Positions 5,411 to 64,000 of a stretch of 64,000 bases of DNA are shown here, piece after piece. The translations under genes were made by a program, and so were the position numbers. Source of the stretch: Sutcliffiella sp. FSL R7-0096. GTDB lineage: Bacteria; Bacillota; Bacilli; Bacillales; Bacillaceae_I. Within the stretch, counting starts at the first letter, position 1. The number at the start of each line of letters is the position of its first letter. The notes under the pieces are model-generated. The model did not search any database. It had not been told where the DNA came from and saw only the letters and a program-made list of their open reading frames with translations. The stretch lies in assembly GCF_038595065.1 (NCBI RefSeq), contig NZ_CP152003.1, positions 4,382,001 to 4,446,000 of the forward strand. The letters run 5' to 3'.

Positions 5411-5881
5411 CTAATCTAAACTTTCTATACCGGTTACCCCTCTTATAGTCGGAGGTAGTTTACCGTCTAAATATGCCCTTGAAAAATCCCCAACTAGTCC
5501 ACCTGCTTTAACAGAGTTGTCATATTTTGTACTATATTCACCTAATAGCATTTCATCTATAGCAAATTTCACAAAATCGGAAATTTCAAGAAGATCCTTC
5601 ACCATAGGAGAATCTTGGATATATTCATCTTTTATTTCTGTTGTTGTAATATTAAGTTCTGTCAAAGCTAAATCCAATGCCTTATTTTTTTCAGGACTAC
5701 GGTCTTCATGAACATCTATCAGTAGGTAATTCCCGGTTAGTTGTTCAAGATAGGCATATGCCAAGTTCTCGGACATTTCGATTTTCTTTACCTCTTCTTC
5801 TACATATGCTTCTTCTCTAGTATCATCGTTGCAAGCCACTAAAAACAATAAGCTTGTAAGTAAGATAATTATTTTCTTCAA
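5411..5881 (-). CDS. prophage-encoded lipoprotein
   Basis: A 156-residue secreted lipoprotein: Lys-Lys, hydrophobic IIILLTSLLFLVA, then a lipobox ending in Cys17 (LVAC). The mature part is acidic and helical and I recognise no family. The start is TTG behind a GGGGGG site. It lies between the late regulator and terminase and is bracketed by terminators, the layout of a lysogenic-conversion (moron) gene. Lipoproteins in this position in other Firmicutes prophages can block DNA entry of superinfecting phages (Ltp of phage TP-J34 is the known case); that role here is only an inference. It could also modify a host surface function. Confidence 0.85.
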   Translation of the reverse strand: MKKIIILLTSLLFLVACNDDTREEAYVEEEVKKIEMSENLAYAYLEQLTGNYLLIDVHEDRSPEKNKALDLALTELNITTTEIKDEYIQDSPMVKDLLEISDFVKFAIDEMLLGEYSTKYDNSVKAGGLVGDFSRAYLDGKLPPTIRGVTGIESLD

Positions 5882-9939: not shown

Positions 9940-10153
9940 TTTTCTCCCCCTGTTCTTTGAATTTGGCAAGGTGCTCGTTCATTTTCCCTCGAAATTTATC
10001 TTGGAAGTAGAAGTGCAGCTTTTCTTCCGAATCATCGAAGCTTAGGACCTTTTTTTCATAGATGAGGAAATCAAGAAGTAATAAAAGAGGCTCCTGGTTG
10101 TAATCAACGGCATCCAGATACCAATCCCTAATTAGCTTGGGCATGTCGGTCAT
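9923..10153 (-). CDS. small phage protein following DnaB
   Basis: About 76 residues from ATG at 10153 (or 73 from 10144). The frame remains open to 10237, but that part lies within dnaB. Sequence PKLIRDWYLDAVDYNQEPLL and an aromatic acidic centre look like an all-helical small domain. It overlaps dnaB by 26 bp. No recognised family; its place suggests a helicase or replication accessory. Confidence 0.6.
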   Translation of the reverse strand: MTDMPKLIRDWYLDAVDYNQEPLLLLLDFLIYEKKVLSFDDSEEKLHFYFQDKFRGKMNEHLAKFKEQGEKNEQVS

Positions 10154-58103: not shown

Positions 58104-59252
58104 TTAGGTGCTAGTTTCAAATTCTATTGGCTTTAATTTATTGATATTAAAATGATATAAAATTGCTTCAACTATACGCCTGGATGCTTCTCCATCTCCA
58201 TACGGATTAGATGCTCTAGACATACTTTCATACACTGTTTCATCTGTTAGAAGTTCAGATGCTAGCATGTAGATCCCTTCCTCGCTCGTTCCTGCTAATT
58301 TTAAAGTTCCTGCTTCAATACCTTCTGGGCGTTCTGTAGTGTCTCTTAGTACTAGAACAGGAGTCCCCAATGAAGGAGCTTCTTCCTGCACTCCACCTGA
58401 ATCGGTCAGAATAATGTGCGCACGTGAAGCAAAGTTATGGAAATCCTGAACTCCTAACGGCTCTATTAAATGAATTCTGGAATCGTTCCCCAATACCTCA
58501 TCTGCTAATTCACGGACTACAGGATTCAAGTGGACTGGGTAAACAACCTGTATATCGTTATATTCTTCAACTAATCTCTTAATAGCTCTAAACATGTTTC
58601 GCATTGGTTCGCCTAGGTTCTCTCTTCTGTGTGCAGTTAATAGAACCATACGGTCGTCTCCAATAATGTCTAGCACCTCATGATGATACTTTTCCGTCAC
58701 AGTTGTTTTTAGAGCGTCTATTGCTGTATTTCCTGTTATATACACATTTTCAGTTTTTTTGTTTTCATTAATTAGGCTAATCGAAGCTTGTTGAGTAGGA
58801 GCAAAGTGTAAATCAGCCAATACTCCCGTTAATTGTCTGTTCATTTCTTCGGGAAAAGGTGAGTACTTATCCCATGTTCTTAGCCCTGCTTCGACGTGCC
58901 CAACTGAAATTTGATTATAAAAAGCTGCTAATCCAGCCACAAATGTAGTGGTAGTATCGCCATGAACAAGTACAATGTCAGGTTGTACTTGTTTTAAAAC
59001 CTTGTCTAGTCCATGAAGTACATTGGAAGTAACATCAATCAAAGTCTGTCTTTCTTTCATAATATTTAAATCATAGTCGGGAGTTACATCAAATATTTCC
59101 AATACTTGATCCAACATTTCTCTATGTTGACCTGTGACGGTGACAATTGATTCTATATGTTCAGAGTTCTTTTGTAACTCTAATACTAAAGGAGCCATTT
59201 TTATTGCTTCAGGTCGAGTCCCAAAGACAGTCATTACTTTAATCTTTTTCAC
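58104..59252 (-). CDS. wecB: UDP-GlcNAc 2-epimerase
   Basis: A 382-residue non-hydrolysing epimerase (MnaA/WecB) converting UDP-GlcNAc to UDP-ManNAc. KVMTVFGTRPEAIKMAPLVL, VTGQHREMLDQVL, VHGDTTTTFVAGLAAFY, VGHVEAGLRTWDKYSPFPEE, and LTDSGGVQEEAPSLGTPVLV are diagnostic. GTG start at 59252 with GGAGG eight bases upstream. Supplies the WecC enzyme and classical teichoic acid linkage units. Monocistronic: terminator after it, AT-rich upstream with TATATATAG near 59300-59310 (minus). Confidence 0.95.
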   Translation of the reverse strand: MKKIKVMTVFGTRPEAIKMAPLVLELQKNSEHIESIVTVTGQHREMLDQVLEIFDVTPDYDLNIMKERQTLIDVTSNVLHGLDKVLKQVQPDIVLVHGDTTTTFVAGLAAFYNQISVGHVEAGLRTWDKYSPFPEEMNRQLTGVLADLHFAPTQQASISLINENKKTENVYITGNTAIDALKTTVTEKYHHEVLDIIGDDRMVLLTAHRRENLGEPMRNMFRAIKRLVEEYNDIQVVYPVHLNPVVRELADEVLGNDSRIHLIEPLGVQDFHNFASRAHIILTDSGGVQEEAPSLGTPVLVLRDTTERPEGIEAGTLKLAGTSEEGIYMLASELLTDETVYESMSRASNPYGDGEASRRIVEAILYHFNINKLKPIEFETST

Positions 59253-59481
59253 TTTGTGTACCTCCAAAGTTGTACATTAAAATTTGATATAAAGAATCTA
59301 CTATATATAATCCAATTGATAAATTAATCCCCTATATATCCTAAAGGATTGGAATTGTAATGTAAATGTAATAAAGGAAAATTCTTTAAAAAGTTTCTGT
59401 AGACCTCACTAAAGAGAAGATTTCTAATTTAATAGTTTGATGGATATACGGGCCAATATAAGGAAGTTAAATTCTCTTCAA

Positions 59482-60174
59482 CTACCTCCCCTCATACCTC
59501 ACATAATTCATACTAACCTTCAAATTAGCATTACGCTCTCGAATCTCATCAATGATAACCTTATCACTTACATCCGTCTTATTATTAATGAGGTATTCCA
59601 TTTGGATCATCGTTCCGAGATTAGTAGTTTCAACTTTTTGCAAACTGTAGGTTTCGAGATATTTCTCAAAGATGTCGTCGAATAGGTTTTCGTAGTGCAG
59701 GTTTTCCGGCACGGTGATTTTCAGACTTTTAGTTGCTTCTCCTCTGCGTCCGTAGTTAAAGAGGAACAGGATGTATATCAGGATGGATAGGGATACTGTG
59801 AATAGGATGGCAAGTAGATAGAATCCCAGTCCACATGCGATTCCTGTTGCCATTCCGAAAAAGATGAAGGCGATGTCTTTTGGGTCTGCCATCGCACTTC
59901 TAAACCGAATAATGGAAAAGGCTCCGACAAGGCCGAATGCTACTGCGACGTTATTACCTATAACAATCATGATGACCGAAACGACCACACCCATGATGAT
60001 GATGGTATGTACAAAGGATTGAGAGTAGTTGTTCCCTTTATGTGTTCTTTTATAGACCTGTGTAATGATTATAGTCAGGACAAAGGTCAGGAATATGGCA
60101 ATGAAGGCCTGGACAATCGTAAGCTTGGTGGTTAGATTAGCGAGTTTGGAAAACTCTTCGATTAGTTGGTTCAT
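59482..60174 (-). CDS. DUF4956 membrane protein
   Basis: A 230-residue protein with four membrane helices (VQAFIAIFLTFVLTIIITQV; TIIIMGVVVSVIMIVIGN; VAFGLVGAFSIIRFR; FYLLAILFTVSLSILIYILF) and a cytoplasmic C-terminal domain (residues 150-230). The central VAVAFGLVGAFSIIRFRSAM and FFGMATGIACGLG segments are the DUF4956 core. Function unknown; repeatedly found with VTC and CotH genes. ATG 60174 with AAAGGTG. Last gene of the operon. Confidence 0.9.
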   Translation of the reverse strand: MNQLIEEFSKLANLTTKLTIVQAFIAIFLTFVLTIIITQVYKRTHKGNNYSQSFVHTIIIMGVVVSVIMIVIGNNVAVAFGLVGAFSIIRFRSAMADPKDIAFIFFGMATGIACGLGFYLLAILFTVSLSILIYILFLFNYGRRGEATKSLKITVPENLHYENLFDDIFEKYLETYSLQKVETTNLGTMIQMEYLINNKTDVSDKVIIDEIRERNANLKVSMNYVRYEGR

Positions 60175-60200
60175 GCTTGTCACCTTTCTTTCTCTTCCGA

Positions 60201-60797
60201 TTAAAAGTCTTTGTCTTCAATAGAAGGATAATAATGGTCAATCGGACTGTAGTCCGTGATAGGATTGCCTTCTAAGTAAAGGCGGATGGTTAAGTATTCG
60301 TGGTCCTGTAATGCTTCAATGTTCTCAATTCGATTATGTCTAAGGTTAACATCCTCTAAGTACGCTGTTTTTGAAAGAGGAGAAATATCCTCTATTAGGT
60401 TATTTCGTAGATTGAGTACCCTGAGATCTTCGAAATTCGTCAAAGTCGAGATATCGGCGATTTGGTTGCCCCTGAGATTTAGGTCAACAAGTTTGGTCAA
60501 TCCCCCAATAGGTTTAATGTCAGTTATCCGGTTGTCTCGCAAATCCAATGTTTTGAGCTCTGTAAGGAAATGTATGCCTTCGAGATTCTCGATCCCCGCG
60601 TCACGGATAGCCAGTTCTTCAATTGTTTTTAATTGATCTTGGGTGATGAGACCGTCCTCTTGGATGACCTCACGCACTGCCTCTTCCACTTTTTTATCTG
60701 CAAAATATATCCCTTTTGGTGCGAGCTGGAACATAATGCCCCAAAGAATCAGTAGAGGGAGTAGTAACAATATAATGAACATTAGCTTTTTCTGCAT
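60201..60797 (-). CDS. membrane-anchored leucine-rich repeat protein
   Basis: A 198-residue protein. N-terminal membrane helix (LMFIILLLLPLLILWGIMFQ), a helical cap (VEEAVREVIQEDGLITQDQL), then about five 22-residue internalin-type LRR units (LKTLDLRDNRITDIKPIGGL, LVDLNLRGNQIADISTLTNF, LRVLNLRNNLIEDISPLSK). Faces the outside by topology. LRRs bind proteins; in this operon it may bridge the CotH-like and membrane components. AAGGAGGGG precedes ATG. Confidence 0.88.
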   Translation of the reverse strand: MQKKLMFIILLLLPLLILWGIMFQLAPKGIYFADKKVEEAVREVIQEDGLITQDQLKTIEELAIRDAGIENLEGIHFLTELKTLDLRDNRITDIKPIGGLTKLVDLNLRGNQIADISTLTNFEDLRVLNLRNNLIEDISPLSKTAYLEDVNLRHNRIENIEALQDHEYLTIRLYLEGNPITDYSPIDHYYPSIEDKDF

Positions 60798-60816: not shown

Positions 60817-62583
60817 CTATGGTTTTTTCAGTATGAATTCCTGTTTTTCTGACAGGTCGATAGACTTTACACTAGTTACTTTATTGGAGAATGGATTTAC
60901 ATAGGAATCTATTATGGTATTTACTGTACCGGCTTCATCCAGTTGAACAAGCTGCAAGTCCCACTGTTCACCAATAGATACGTCCTCATGGTACCAGTTT
61001 TCTTTTCCAATCCATCCTGTATCGTTTCGATAGTAAAGTGTCAGTTGTCCTTTCAAACTACCACCACTAGTTTCAATGACCCAGCAACGGTCAATGTCTG
61101 TAGATGAGCTGCTCGGTTGGACTGTAACGGTTAGGCTTTGGGCATTTTCATTACTTTCCACATCCACTTTTCCGATTACCCAACCCTCTTTGTCTCGTAA
61201 GTAAAGTACATCACTAGCCTTGACGTTGGTAACATCTATGGTGGCAGTATTTTTCACTGTCCCAAGTCCTTCAAGATATTGCGTTAGATATTGATAACGC
61301 AATTCAATGAAATCTAGTATGTTTTCTTTATAATACTCCTCATGCCCTTTTTCGCCTATGCTGTTCTTTTCATGCAAAATAAATTTCTTTTCCGCTGTAT
61401 GTTCACCGTTTAATTCGAGGATGTTAGAAAATTCATCCATTTTATTTTGAAAATAATAGGACGAAAAGGTTTCAGACATCAAGTATTGCATTCGTTCATT
61501 TAACTGTGCTCTTAGCTCTGGTGTATCCAAAAACTTTTGGAGCAATTGGTTATCAAACCTTGATTGGATTGGGGATTCATAGGCAAAGAAATGGTTCCCC
61601 GTCCCTGCCCCTTGACGGTAATGGGAGCCAAAAGAAAGGTCTTTATCCCATGGAATCAGTTTCCATTTGGCTTCGTCTGTTTCTGAATCCAAGTACATCC
61701 AATAGTCATCGGAGAAAGCGTCTACATCAGCAATCAAAAAATGAACGATTAGCCAGTCGATAAAGGCCTGCGTATCCACCCGTTCTTCAATTCCATTAAC
61801 AAAATCCGGGCCAGCCTCTGTATGATAGACCCATTCCAACAACTCTGAAAAAGCTTTCCAGTCCGGCTTATTTCGATAATTGGTGGTTTGCTCCAAAAAC
61901 TCTGCTCTATTTTCTACCGTTTGAATATCAAAACTGAAGATCGAGGAAGACTCTACATTTTCCAGTTGCAGATTGTGTCTGAATTCGTCCCTAACCAATG
62001 TCCCACTAGGGTTCAATCCGAAATGGGCAAGCATGTGATCGTCAATTCTTTCAATATGAAGGTATAATCCTTCAAAACTACCATTTACATAAACATTGAA
62101 GTATTTTGTCCGGGGGGCAGGCAGCCCCAACTCATGAAACATATCAAATGATAGTTTCTCCCTCATCATGGAAGGGTCTGTGTACATGGCATTCAAGTTC
62201 ATATGTGTCCCACCAAAAATAAACTCCTTTGGTGAATCAAATCGAATACTGAACGATTTCTTCGGAAGTCCTCTTGAAGAATTCCCTCTGAACCTAAGTT
62301 CTGCATTATGTTCCTTTAAAGACCCGTCTACCGCTATGGCTTGAATACGTTGATCGTCTTTAGCATCCCTGCTATATAGGTAGTCGAGATCAACCTCGTT
62401 CATAGTCAAATAAAGATTTCCGATTTGGTCATTTTCTTCTGGTGTGTTTTCAGGAATATGAGCTCCATCATTTTCTTGCAGACTAGTAGTCACTTTTTCA
62501 GGGGATGCCGCCAAAAAGAAAGCCAACCCGAACACACCAAGAAAACATATTGATAGTAGTGAAAGTGTTAACCATTTATTCAT
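60817..62583 (-). CDS. extracellular CotH kinase-like protein
   Basis: A 588-residue protein with N-terminal membrane anchor (LTLSLLSICFLGVFGLAFFL). The CotH atypical-kinase domain (residues 50-400) shows AELRFRGNSSRGLPKKSFSI (Lys of the ATP site), GLYLHIERIDD, FLIADVDAFSDDYWMYLD and the metal-binding WKLIPWDKDLSFG. The C-terminal 150 residues are beta-rich. CotH of spores phosphorylates coat proteins; here the protein is outside the membrane and linked to a VTC-type polymerase, so its substrate is unknown. AAGGAG precedes ATG. Confidence 0.9.
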   Translation of the reverse strand: MNKWLTLSLLSICFLGVFGLAFFLAASPEKVTTSLQENDGAHIPENTPEENDQIGNLYLTMNEVDLDYLYSRDAKDDQRIQAIAVDGSLKEHNAELRFRGNSSRGLPKKSFSIRFDSPKEFIFGGTHMNLNAMYTDPSMMREKLSFDMFHELGLPAPRTKYFNVYVNGSFEGLYLHIERIDDHMLAHFGLNPSGTLVRDEFRHNLQLENVESSSIFSFDIQTVENRAEFLEQTTNYRNKPDWKAFSELLEWVYHTEAGPDFVNGIEERVDTQAFIDWLIVHFLIADVDAFSDDYWMYLDSETDEAKWKLIPWDKDLSFGSHYRQGAGTGNHFFAYESPIQSRFDNQLLQKFLDTPELRAQLNERMQYLMSETFSSYYFQNKMDEFSNILELNGEHTAEKKFILHEKNSIGEKGHEEYYKENILDFIELRYQYLTQYLEGLGTVKNTATIDVTNVKASDVLYLRDKEGWVIGKVDVESNENAQSLTVTVQPSSSSTDIDRCWVIETSGGSLKGQLTLYYRNDTGWIGKENWYHEDVSIGEQWDLQLVQLDEAGTVNTIIDSYVNPFSNKVTSVKSIDLSEKQEFILKKP

Positions 62584-62595
62584 AGGAATAGCTCC

Positions 62596-63354
62596 TTAAC
62601 CGGTATAGACCGCTGTATTCTCTAATGTTGAGCTTCTATTTTGTTCTTCTGCCATTAGGTCGATGCTCGTGCAAAATTTGGATACACTTTGCTTTTTGCA
62701 CCGATAGTCACTGAGTAGTCTTGTAAGCCATAACGGCACACTGTGCGTAACCTTCACTTCCATAATGACAAGTTCAGGATTTACGAAATTTGTTCCAAGC
62801 GGCCCATTTTCAATCCGCAAACCATGAGACCGGCACATAAGATTATAATCAAATGTAACCCTTAAATCTTCATCATAAATACCGTGAAACGCTTGGCGGT
62901 CATAACTCACTACCACTTCCGGCTGCAATTGATAAAGAGTGCGAAAGGAATGAACTTCTTTCATTGTTTGGGGATTGGAAATGTTTAAATCCTGTGGAAG
63001 GGATAAATCGCTTTGATTTAAATAGCGGTATGCATCCTGCAGGGTAATTTTCGTCCTTCTTTTATTAACAACATTTTTATACTTTTGTTTTACTTCAAAA
63101 AAAGCGGGATCCTCCATTGTGACCTCGTTATAAACCCGTAATCTTAATTTCTGTCGGAAATTTAATTTATTCCGTGTTTCATAGTAGACCTTATAATCTG
63201 GGGAATCAAAATACAAACTAATAATGTTGTACTTTCCCTCTTCTCCAAATTTGTCATACCTCATGTATGGTTGCATTTCGTCCACAAGCTTCAAATACAT
63301 GTCAAAGGGGATTAAGTACTTCAGTTCATATCTGCTGAAAATCTCTAGTGCCAT
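62596..63354 (-). CDS. VTC-domain (polyphosphate polymerase-like) protein
   Basis: A 252-residue cytoplasmic protein of the VTC/CYTH tunnel fold. Basic and acidic residues that line the tunnel are present: FSRYELKYLI, RQKLRLRVYN, PAFFEVKQKYKNVVNKRRTK, VVSYDRQAF and VIMEVKVT. Yeast Vtc4 makes polyphosphate from ATP with this fold; bacterial members are barely studied. First gene of the operon behind a PhoP-box-like region, which supports a link to phosphate. Ribosome site GGAGG is about 14 nt from ATG, long but without a better start. Confidence 0.9.
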   Translation of the reverse strand: MALEIFSRYELKYLIPFDMYLKLVDEMQPYMRYDKFGEEGKYNIISLYFDSPDYKVYYETRNKLNFRQKLRLRVYNEVTMEDPAFFEVKQKYKNVVNKRRTKITLQDAYRYLNQSDLSLPQDLNISNPQTMKEVHSFRTLYQLQPEVVVSYDRQAFHGIYDEDLRVTFDYNLMCRSHGLRIENGPLGTNFVNPELVIMEVKVTHSVPLWLTRLLSDYRCKKQSVSKFCTSIDLMAEEQNRSSTLENTAVYTG

Positions 63355-63408
63355 AATGAATTCTCGTCCTCCTTTCTTCTGCTAATCTGGACCCTTCTTT
63401 CTTTTACA

Positions 63409-63447
63409 TGTAAGTATAATGTTAATACAGTGTAAATATTTTGTAAA
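63409..63447 (-). promoter_or_regulatory. PhoP box in the VTC operon promoter
   Basis: On the minus strand TTTACA, TTTACA, TTAACA and CTTACA stand at exact 11-bp intervals (63447-63442, 63436-63431, 63425-63420, 63414-63409), fitting TT(A/T/C)A(C/T)A repeats with 5-bp spacers that bind PhoP~P in Bacillus. TATACT overlapping the third spacer can serve as -10. They lie 55-95 bp upstream of the VTC ATG in the direction of transcription. Confidence 0.75.
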
Positions 63448-63493
63448 CTTTGTTATAGGAGGAGGGGGAGTCCTCGAAAGAAAATCCGTTTCA

Positions 63494-63539
63494 AAACAAA
63501 AAAAGAGCTTGGGTGCAATTGTGCACTCCAAGCCCCTCT
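63494..63539 (-). terminator. terminator of the edge dehydrogenase gene
   Basis: AGAGxGGCTTGGAGTGCA / TGCACxCAAGCTCT stem of about 16 bp followed by TTTTTTTG on the minus strand. Confidence 0.9.
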
Positions 63540-63545
63540 CACTTT

Positions 63546-64000
63546 CTATAATCTCCACAACGTCACATTTTCCGGACATTCTTCCTTTGCCAATTTACTC
63601 TTAATATCCACCACTACTCCAGAACTACCTTTCAATAGTTCGGCAAATTGGCTCCACCCTTTATTTACATACTCTTGATGTGGAACTGCGAATACTACTG
63701 CATCGGCCGGTTGTAGGTTCTCATAATCCACTAACTCAATGCCGTATTCTCTAATTGCATCTTCTTTTTCGGCATGTGTATCCGTAACCTGTACTTCAAC
63801 ACCGAACTCCTTCAATTCATCGATTACATCGATGACTCGTGAATTTCTTAGATCTGGCACATTCTCTTTAAAGGTTAAGCCAAGAACGGTGACTTTCGCT
63901 CCCTGCACCTTCATATCTTTTTTTATCATCTCTTTTATTAAGGAAGTAGCGATGTGTTTACCCATATTTTCATTAATTCTGCGTCCTGCCAGAATTACTT
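63546..64000 (-). CDS. nucleotide-sugar dehydrogenase, C-terminal part (cut by window)
   Basis: The last 150 or so residues of a UDP-glucose/GDP-mannose dehydrogenase-family protein; the frame stays open to the window edge (VILAGRRINENMGKHIAT reads across the internal ATG at 63965). VTVLGLTFKENVPDLRNSRV, VDYENLQPADAVVFAVPH and the end are like TviB/WbpA-type enzymes acting on UDP-GlcNAc or UDP-GalNAc derivatives. A third dehydrogenase distinct from TuaD and WecC. Confidence 0.9.
   Translation of the reverse strand, partial: VILAGRRINENMGKHIATSLIKEMIKKDMKVQGAKVTVLGLTFKENVPDLRNSRVIDVIDELKEFGVEVQVTDTHAEKEDAIREYGIELVDYENLQPADAVVFAVPHQEYVNKGWSQFAELLKGSSGVVVDIKSKLAKEECPENVTLWRL

What the first reader, a model, noticed from the sequence alone, without database searches (positions are those of the whole stretch)
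63409..63447. PhoP-box array controlling a VTC/CotH/LRR/DUF4956 operon
Four TT(T/A)ACA-type hexamers at exactly 11-bp spacing point into an operon that starts with a VTC-type polyphosphate-polymerase-fold protein. The repeat pattern is read directly; that such arrays bind PhoP~P in Bacillus is established. A phosphate-regulated operon with an atypical extracellular kinase, an external LRR protein and DUF4956 is, as far as I know, undescribed. It may store, sense or trade phosphate at the membrane.
Basis: partly seen in the sequence, partly recalled or inferred. Interest (0 to 1): 0.85.

Follow-up and report, generated by a model that had tools for sequence, protein, structure and literature searches.

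The report
Phosphate switch on polyphosphate-like surface operon
In a Bacillus-like bacterium, four genes (a polyphosphate-type enzyme, an outward-facing kinase-like protein, a repeat protein and a membrane protein) sit behind what looks like a strong phosphate-starvation switch that most relatives examined lack.

Summary
Four TTTACA-type hexamers at exact 11-bp spacing lie upstream of a four-gene operon (VTC, CotH, LRR, DUF4956) in a Sutcliffiella genome. It is not chance: across 18 genomes of the family, TTWACA x4 (at most 1 mismatch) matches three times, always before this operon; the reversed pattern never. A matrix built from other genera's pstS arrays scores it 19.4 bits; the best of 468 other upstream regions scores 6.7. 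The genome's other exact three-box sites lie at pstS, the phoR end and a phnD-like gene. PhoP control is very likely; WalR, with a nearly reverse-complement motif, is the main rival. The trio CotH/VTC-type/DUF4956 is already in print beside pel genes (PMC7112168); my searches showed no PhoP link. New here: DUF4956 is a distant MgtC relative (97.4% profile probability). PhoP control is lineage-specific: 29 of 33 VTC regions do not beat the null, ten carry a different 11-bp array (YTCTMA) also found beside kinase-PepSY genes, and one carries both. What the enzyme makes and what the kinase does remain untested.

The parts
63409..63447 (-). Four-hexamer, 11-bp-spaced PhoP-type array (TTTACA, TTTACA, TTAACA, CTTACA)
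63401..63406 (-). Candidate -10 element TAAAAG, 2 nt after the last box (TAAAAT in S. horikoshii, TAGAAT in S. rhizosphaerae); no good -35
   Evidence: -35 judged by eye; weak, not tested
62596..63354 (-). VTC-domain protein, 252 aa, first gene of the operon
   Evidence: Pfam PF09359 E 5e-50; profile match to yeast Vtc4 3g3q E 2.4e-4
60817..62583 (-). CotH-domain (kinase-family) protein, 588 aa, with N-terminal hydrophobic segment (by reading)
   Evidence: Pfam PF08757 E 5.4e-67; 5jd9 CotH E 7.3e-26
60201..60797 (-). Leucine-rich-repeat protein, 198 aa, with N-terminal hydrophobic segment (by reading)
   Evidence: Pfam LRR_4 E 1.2e-21
59482..60183 (-). DUF4956 membrane protein, 233 aa; MgtC-like, helices then an ACT/ferredoxin-like C-terminal domain
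   Evidence: Pfam E 7.5e-19; hhalign to MgtC 97.4%; model
63492..63545 (-). Intrinsic terminator after the upstream UDP-sugar dehydrogenase gene, separating it from this operon
   Evidence: folds at -25.2 kcal/mol, z -4.78, followed by a U run; the scan did not list it
63546..63998 (-). 3' part of a UDP-glucose/GDP-mannose dehydrogenase gene (426 aa in L002), upstream neighbour, not part of the operon
58104..59267 (-). UDP-GlcNAc 2-epimerase, downstream neighbour after a 214-nt gap, probably a separate unit

Best explanation
The array is a four-site operator for the phosphate response regulator PhoP. PhoP~P most likely binds it as two dimers in tandem and, under phosphate limitation, switches on the four-gene operon (activation rather than repression: about 0.7). 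The operon encodes a conserved membrane module. A cytosolic VTC-type triphosphate-tunnel enzyme, probably making polyphosphate or a related phosphoanhydride from nucleotide triphosphate, is paired with DUF4956, an MgtC-like membrane protein that I infer anchors, regulates or couples it. Sutcliffiella adds an LRR protein and a CotH-type kinase, both inferred to be outside the cytoplasm and to act on surface proteins or polymers. Shown: the array, its statistics, its conservation in the genus, the operon, the domain families and the DUF4956-MgtC relationship. Inferred: PhoP binding, its sign, the product of VTC, kinase activity and substrate, and the purpose (remodelling of the envelope when phosphate is short). 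PhoP control was probably acquired in this lineage: other genera of the order use a different 11-bp array that also lies beside a kinase-PepSY locus.
For: A matrix from 15 pstS arrays of other genera scores the VTC promoters of the window, S. horikoshii and S. rhizosphaerae at 19.4, 20.5 and 26.9 bits; the maximum of 468 other upstream regions of the same loci is 6.7. TTWACA x4 with at most 1 mismatch: 3 matches in 18 genomes, all at this operon; reversed-pattern control 0. In the genome, exact three-box matches lie only at pstS, the phoR end, a phnD-like/ZIP-like intergenic region and here. phoP-phoR are present; PhoR passes the PnpS model (504 vs 400 bits). Activation: same orientation as at pstS and no recognisable -35 (by eye). 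Core pair: VTC lies next to DUF4956 in 32 of 33 loci and in 22 of 24 phylum-level loci, with CotH in 15 of 24. LRR and CotH are one protein in 6 of 7 LRR proteins of relatives sent to Pfam. VTC residues K12, R71, R73, E87, K89, K98, R153 and R165 pair with identical residues of Vtc4 and are invariant in 9 orthologues.
Against: The candidate -10 lies 2 nt after the last box, against 7 nt at pstS of the same genus, half a helical turn off, so activation is not secure. 29 of 33 VTC regions do not exceed the null maximum, so the module does not require PhoP. The null regions were not restricted to intergenic DNA, which may make that null lenient. WalR would accept two of the antisense hexamer pairs, and the PhoP protein's best NCBIfam model is YycF (=WalR), below its cut-off. 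Only 4 of 16 genomes of the genus have the operon. Making polyphosphate under phosphate shortage is counter-intuitive. The kinase's catalytic-loop Asn is Asp in Sutcliffiella. No expression data exist here.
Confidence: 0.6

Rival explanations
1. The array is a WalR (YycF) operator, so the operon belongs to the essential cell-wall regulon and not to the Pho regulon, or is shared by both.
For: The WalR motif TGT(A/T)A(A/T/C)-N5-TGT(A/T)A(A/T/C) is given in PMC5405149 (passages read). Read on the plus strand, this array contains TGTTAA-N5-TGTAAA and TGTAAA-N5-TGTAAA, two matches. That paper also lists a reverse-oriented site at pstS. The operon looks envelope-related.
Against: Four phased boxes rather than two; a pstS-derived matrix fits it better than any of 468 other upstream regions; the other exact three-box sites in the genome touch phosphate genes. 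No WalR matrix was built here, so the two were not tested head to head.
Confidence: 0.15
2. PhoP~P binds but represses the operon, as I recall for tag genes of B. subtilis, shutting down phosphate-consuming synthesis at the membrane when phosphate is short.
For: Box 4 ends only 2 nt before the best -10 candidate, 5 bp closer than at pstS; a phosphate polymer would be costly under starvation.
Against: Boxes have the same orientation as at pstS; the promoter has no recognisable -35, which is usual for activator-dependent promoters (by eye).
Confidence: 0.25
3. The operon is an accessory set of an exopolysaccharide system (pel-like), with CotH regulating synthesis by phosphorylation; phosphate control only times matrix production.
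For: PMC7112168 places CotH, a poly-phosphate polymerase and DUF4956 next to pelDEADAFG in streptococci and clostridia and proposes such a role for CotH (passages read). The neighbours here are a UDP-sugar dehydrogenase and a UDP-GlcNAc 2-epimerase.
Against: 26 of 33 loci with VTC show no homologue of either neighbour in the stretch held. I did not search this genome for pel genes.
Confidence: 0.25
4. The array is a chance AT-rich repeat without function.
For: Region is 34% GC.
Against: 0 in 100 shuffles of the window, 0 reversed controls in 18 genomes, retained in three species.
Confidence: 0.02

Closest known systems
PhoP-activated promoters of Bacillus (pstS type)
   Same: Four TTWACA-like hexamers at 11-bp spacing, same strand as the gene; same matrix fits
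   Different: Target genes are new for the regulon as far as I searched; last box is 5 bp closer to the candidate -10
CotH/poly-phosphate polymerase/DUF4956 accessory genes of Gram-positive pel loci (PMC7112168)
   Same: Same three families in one cluster
   Different: An LRR protein and a PhoP-type operator here, no DUF4832 in the operon; pel genes were not looked for
Yeast VTC complex (Vtc4 catalytic domain with membrane partners; recalled)
   Same: VTC tunnel domain with matching basic and acidic residues; a membrane protein encoded beside it
   Different: Stand-alone VTC domain of 252 aa with no other Pfam domain; partner is MgtC-like DUF4956
MgtC of Salmonella, which binds PhoR and promotes phosphate uptake (PMC6658541, abstract and outline read)
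   Same: DUF4956 aligns along most of its length with MgtC relatives, C-terminal domain included
   Different: Separate family with its own conserved motif (FGLVGAFSIIRFRSA); function not shown; the genome also has a true MgtC-family gene
WalR (YycF) operators
   Same: 11-bp direct repeat of a near reverse-complement hexamer
   Different: Four boxes, orientation and company of phosphate genes

Membership tests
PhoP operator (Bacillus type) | Tandem TTWACA-type hexamers at 11-bp spacing upstream of the gene | tested here: met
   the hexamer consensus is recalled, the 11-nt repeat form is in PMC4415409 (passages)
PhoP operator (Bacillus type) | Same motif as at known Pho genes of the same organisms | tested here: met
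   pstS matrix; phoR end and phnD-like sites
PhoP operator (Bacillus type) | Conserved before orthologous operons | tested here: met
   3 of 4 Sutcliffiella genomes with the operon fully, the fourth degraded; outside the genus only G356 at VTC and G090 at LRR-CotH exceed the null
PhoP operator (Bacillus type) | Spacing to the -10 as at activated Pho promoters | tested here: inconclusive
   2 nt here, 7 nt at pstS
PhoP operator (Bacillus type) | Bound by PhoP~P and responsive to phosphate | not testable with these tools
   needs footprint and expression data
WalR operator | TGTWAH-N5-TGTWAH | tested here: met
   read directly on the plus strand; consensus from PMC5405149
WalR operator | Fits WalR sites better than PhoP sites | not tested
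   no WalR matrix built
VTC polyphosphate polymerase | VTC domain with tunnel Lys/Arg/Glu residues | tested here: met
   Pfam; HMMER alignment to Vtc4 pairs K12, R71, R73, E87, K89, K98, R153, R165; E199 and K201 pair only in a sub-threshold Vtc2 stretch; K226 placed by eye; that these are the catalytic residues is recalled
VTC polyphosphate polymerase | Makes polyphosphate from ATP | not testable with these tools
   no assay; no PPK1 found in this genome, PPK2 not searched
CotH-domain family | CotH domain with catalytic Asp and metal-binding Asp motif | tested here: met
   the roles of the residues are recalled
Active CotH-type kinase | Catalytic-loop Asn after the catalytic Asp | tested here: not met
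   DAFSDDY in all four Sutcliffiella versus DGFVHNY in 5jd9; importance of this Asn is recalled, so activity is left open
MgtC superfamily (DUF4956) | Profile similarity over membrane part and C-terminal domain | tested here: met
   97.4%, 206 columns; reversed 0.5%, 20 column shuffles at most 2.7%; shallow sets gave only 31.8%; the MgtC Pfam model scores one DUF4956 protein at 20.5 bits, below its 31.4 cut-off
MgtC superfamily (DUF4956) | C-terminal ACT-like domain | tested here: inconclusive
Pel accessory gene set | Contiguous with pelDEADAFG | not tested
   pel genes not searched in this genome

The most novel reading that the evidence does not exclude
VTC and the MgtC-like DUF4956 form a transmembrane phosphoryl-supply machine: VTC builds a phosphoanhydride at the inner face, DUF4956 passes it out or signals its level, and the extracytoplasmic LRR-CotH kinase uses it as donor outside the cell, where ATP is scarce. 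Different bacteria plug this module into different OmpR-type sensors; in Sutcliffiella it was moved from an envelope-type (kinase-PepSY, YTCTMA array) circuit to the phosphate circuit, and G356 preserves both operators side by side.
Probability: 0.15. Interest if true: 0.88.

Novelty: new variant of a known kind. Interest (0 to 1): 0.6.

Why it matters
VTC-CotH-DUF4956 clusters recur in the Firmicutes sampled here and I found no assigned function for them. A clean phosphate operator in front of one gives a condition under which to look for its product. The MgtC relationship gives DUF4956 a testable role (partner of a sensor kinase or of an enzyme). The comparison of arrays suggests one module being wired to different two-component systems, which is open to direct test by footprinting. 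It also bears on how extracytoplasmic kinases obtain a phosphate donor.

Tried and rejected
PhoP control as a general property of VTC operons: rejected. 29 of 33 VTC upstream regions do not exceed the null maximum, and none of the 22 phylum-level first-gene upstream regions that could be scanned (of 24) reached 0 bits; the best was -6.0.

Repeats at lag 11 as a general signature: VTC upstream regions exceed other regions at lag 11 (mean difference 1.73, 53 vs 490; without Sutcliffiella 1.59), and lags 8, 9, 10 and 12 show nothing over all 53 regions. But lags 13 and 17 are mildly raised, and among the 20 phylum-level regions lags 12, 13 and 17 are raised too; only 4 of 53 exceed the 99% null quantile. 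I keep it as a lead.

YTCTMA array: the motif was read off the same loci before it was scored, so 10 of 53 versus 0 of 490 (score 16 or more) is partly circular. The whole-genome scan has a real background: 54 matches in 16 genomes against 17 for the reversed pattern; 12 of the 54 rows lie at VTC, in 9 genomes. The independent support is that sites of that scan lie beside PepSY genes with a kinase gene next to them.

Structure of VTC: AlphaFold model had mean pLDDT 46.4, so no fold search was made with it. Foldseek with the DUF4956 model gave no match at E 0.001 or better. First MgtC-DUF4956 comparison with shallow sets gave only 31.8%; the deeper sets gave 97.4%.

PPK1 and VTC never co-occur in the 18 family genomes (3 and 6 carriers), but zero overlap is not surprising at these numbers.

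LRR-CotH fusion as proof of partnership: weakened, because the window's CotH did not match the fused proteins in phmmer at 1e-5, so they are different subfamilies.

Full report
What is there. The minus strand at 63447-63409 holds TTTACA, TTTACA, TTAACA and CTTACA in exact 11-bp register, ending 55 nt before the ATG of a VTC-domain gene. Downstream follow CotH, LRR and DUF4956 genes with gaps of 12, 19 and 17 nt. A strong intrinsic terminator closes the preceding UDP-sugar dehydrogenase gene, so the array sits at the head of its own transcription unit. The next gene downstream, UDP-GlcNAc 2-epimerase, starts 214 nt later.

The organism. The genome has 4.9 Mb in one contig. Two genomes of the same genus have contigs with the same lengths as named records of Bacillus (Sutcliffiella) horikoshii FJAT-14233 and Sutcliffiella rhizosphaerae CIP 111883, so I take the window to be Sutcliffiella. 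That is an inference from contig lengths.

Is it more than chance? In the window, 100 shuffles gave no match to the four-box pattern, and no other lag from 8 to 16 gives more than 19 of 24 on either strand. In the genome the fitted pattern matches without mismatch only here; the next distinct places, with 2 mismatches, are 79 nt before pstS and at the end of phoR; two places with 3 mismatches are not at phosphate genes by my reading. An exact three-box pattern matches four places: pstS, the phoR end, the intergenic region between a phnD-like and a ZIP-like transporter gene, and this operon; allowing one mismatch adds only a shifted match here (gene names of these loci are my reading of the translations). 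Over 18 genomes of the family, the generic pattern TTWACA x4 with at most one mismatch matches three times, each before this operon; the reversed control never matches.

Independent matrix. I searched for pstS in the 29 genomes that carry VTC; 21 had a match. Of 22 pstS upstream regions, 18 score 20 or more of 24 for four boxes at 11 bp. A matrix from the 15 of these outside Sutcliffiella was applied to VTC promoters: 19.4 bits (window), 20.5 (S. horikoshii), 26.9 (S. rhizosphaerae) and 15.2 (G356, another family). The LRR-CotH promoter of G090 scored 12.7. The best of 468 other upstream regions in the same 33 loci was 6.7; these null regions were not restricted to intergenic DNA. The other 29 of 33 VTC regions did not exceed that maximum; the fourth Sutcliffiella genome, G003, scored about 0, although it keeps two exact and two degraded boxes in phase. 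The three Halalkalibacter-group loci show no such array.

The regulator. phoP and phoR lie together, downstream of a malate-dehydrogenase-like gene (by reading). PhoR passes NCBIfam's PnpS cut-off (504 vs 400 bits); PhoP falls below the cut-offs of all 25 models shown, and its best-scoring model is YycF, so its name rests on the pairing with phoR. WalR's motif, given in PMC5405149 (passages), is almost the reverse complement of the PhoP hexamer, so sequence alone cannot exclude it. The company of phosphate genes and the four-box form argue for PhoP. The 11-nt direct-repeat form of PHO boxes is described in PMC4415409 (passages); the TT(A/T/C)ACA consensus for Bacillus is recalled.

Sign of control. 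In three species a TA(A/G)AA(T/G) element follows the last box by 2 nt; at pstS of the same genus TATATT follows by 7 nt. Neither promoter has a recognisable -35 by eye. I lean to activation (0.7) but the half-turn offset is a real objection.

The operon's proteins. VTC matches yeast Vtc4 by profile (E 2.4e-4); eight tunnel residues pair with identical residues and are invariant in nine orthologues. CotH matches the solved spore-coat kinase (E 7.3e-26); its catalytic and metal aspartates are kept, but an asparagine of the loop is aspartate in all four Sutcliffiella, so activity is open. CotH and LRR both begin with a hydrophobic segment, so I place them outside the cytoplasm (by reading). In six of seven LRR proteins of relatives sent to Pfam, LRR and CotH are one polypeptide, and these six are encoded divergently from VTC-DUF4956. 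The window's CotH is of another subfamily: phmmer did not link it to the fused proteins.

Distribution. VTC of this type (E 1e-40 or better) occurs in 28 of 397 order genomes. DUF4956 lies beside VTC in 32 of 33 loci and in 22 of 24 phylum-level loci, with CotH in 15 of 24 within the 1.5-kb flanks.

A second operator. Ten of 53 VTC upstream regions carry three YTCTMA hexamers at 11 bp (score 16 or more of 18; 0 of 490 other regions, partly circular). In 30 loci of 18 to 20 kb, sites scoring 17 or more occur only before VTC, in 9 loci. G356 has both this array and the PhoP array. In G176 a response regulator, a kinase and a PepSY protein directly precede VTC. Among 30 loci from the genome-wide scan, 7 hold a PepSY match, 6 of these with a kinase match of the same type. 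The scan has a background of 17 reversed-pattern matches to 54 real ones. I read this as an envelope-type two-component system controlling VTC in those lineages and PhoP having taken over in Sutcliffiella. The likeness of the gene order to ykoGHI of B. subtilis is recalled.

In print. Full-text searches for DUF4956 (3 papers), VTC domain/CotH/DUF4956 (2 papers), polyphosphate polymerase domain/CotH/VTC (4 papers), CotH kinase combinations (4 papers) and PhoP with Sutcliffiella (0 papers) listed no paper that I recognised as reporting PhoP control of this set; of the listed papers only PMC7112168 and PMC2879425 were opened, by passages. PMC7112168 describes the trio beside pel genes and PMC2879425 a VTC/CotH cluster in a Clostridium perfringens locus. 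Only an open-licence library was searched.

Verdict.

Noticed in passing
L071, L072, L074, L075, L085, L096-L100 (VTC upstream regions); L073:7075-10060: A different 11-bp array, YTCTMA x3, precedes VTC-DUF4956 in ten loci of other genera of the order; the same kind of site lies beside kinase-PepSY genes, and G176 has regulator-kinase-PepSY-VTC-DUF4956 in a row.
   Followed up: partly
L075 about 5420-5510: One VTC promoter (G356) carries a PhoP-type array and a YTCTMA array in tandem, as if caught between two regulators.
   Followed up: partly
window 59482-60183; DUF4956 genes of L071-L154: DUF4956 is a distant relative of MgtC over most of its length (97.4% profile probability, shuffled controls at most 2.7%).
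   Followed up: yes
L087 about 10100-10150 (same site in L028): In G090 a PhoP-type array points at the divergent LRR-CotH gene instead of at VTC.
   Followed up: partly
L004:1501-1539 (also in L101): A PhoP-type array lies at the very end of phoR, about 370 nt before HflK/HflC-like genes (names by reading).
   Followed up: no
L106:1501-1528: A three-box TTAACA array lies between a phnD-like binding-protein gene and a ZIP-like metal transporter gene (names by reading).
   Followed up: no
L193 and L191, site at 1501: A YTCTMA array (one mismatch) shared by two Sutcliffiella genomes precedes an HtrA-like protease gene (by reading), next to a histidine kinase gene.
   Followed up: partly
18 genomes of the family: PPK1 (3 genomes) and VTC (6 genomes) do not co-occur; too few to be significant.
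   Followed up: partly
L013, between the TTAACA boxes and the VTC start: A long near-perfect inverted repeat lies in the leader of the VTC gene in G001 (by reading).
   Followed up: no
L131, L133, L134 upstream of VTC: TTTAAG followed 11 bp later by a TTAAAG/CTAAAG/TTCAAG hexamer, similar to what I recall for CiaR sites, precedes VTC in three genomes of the same class.
   Followed up: no
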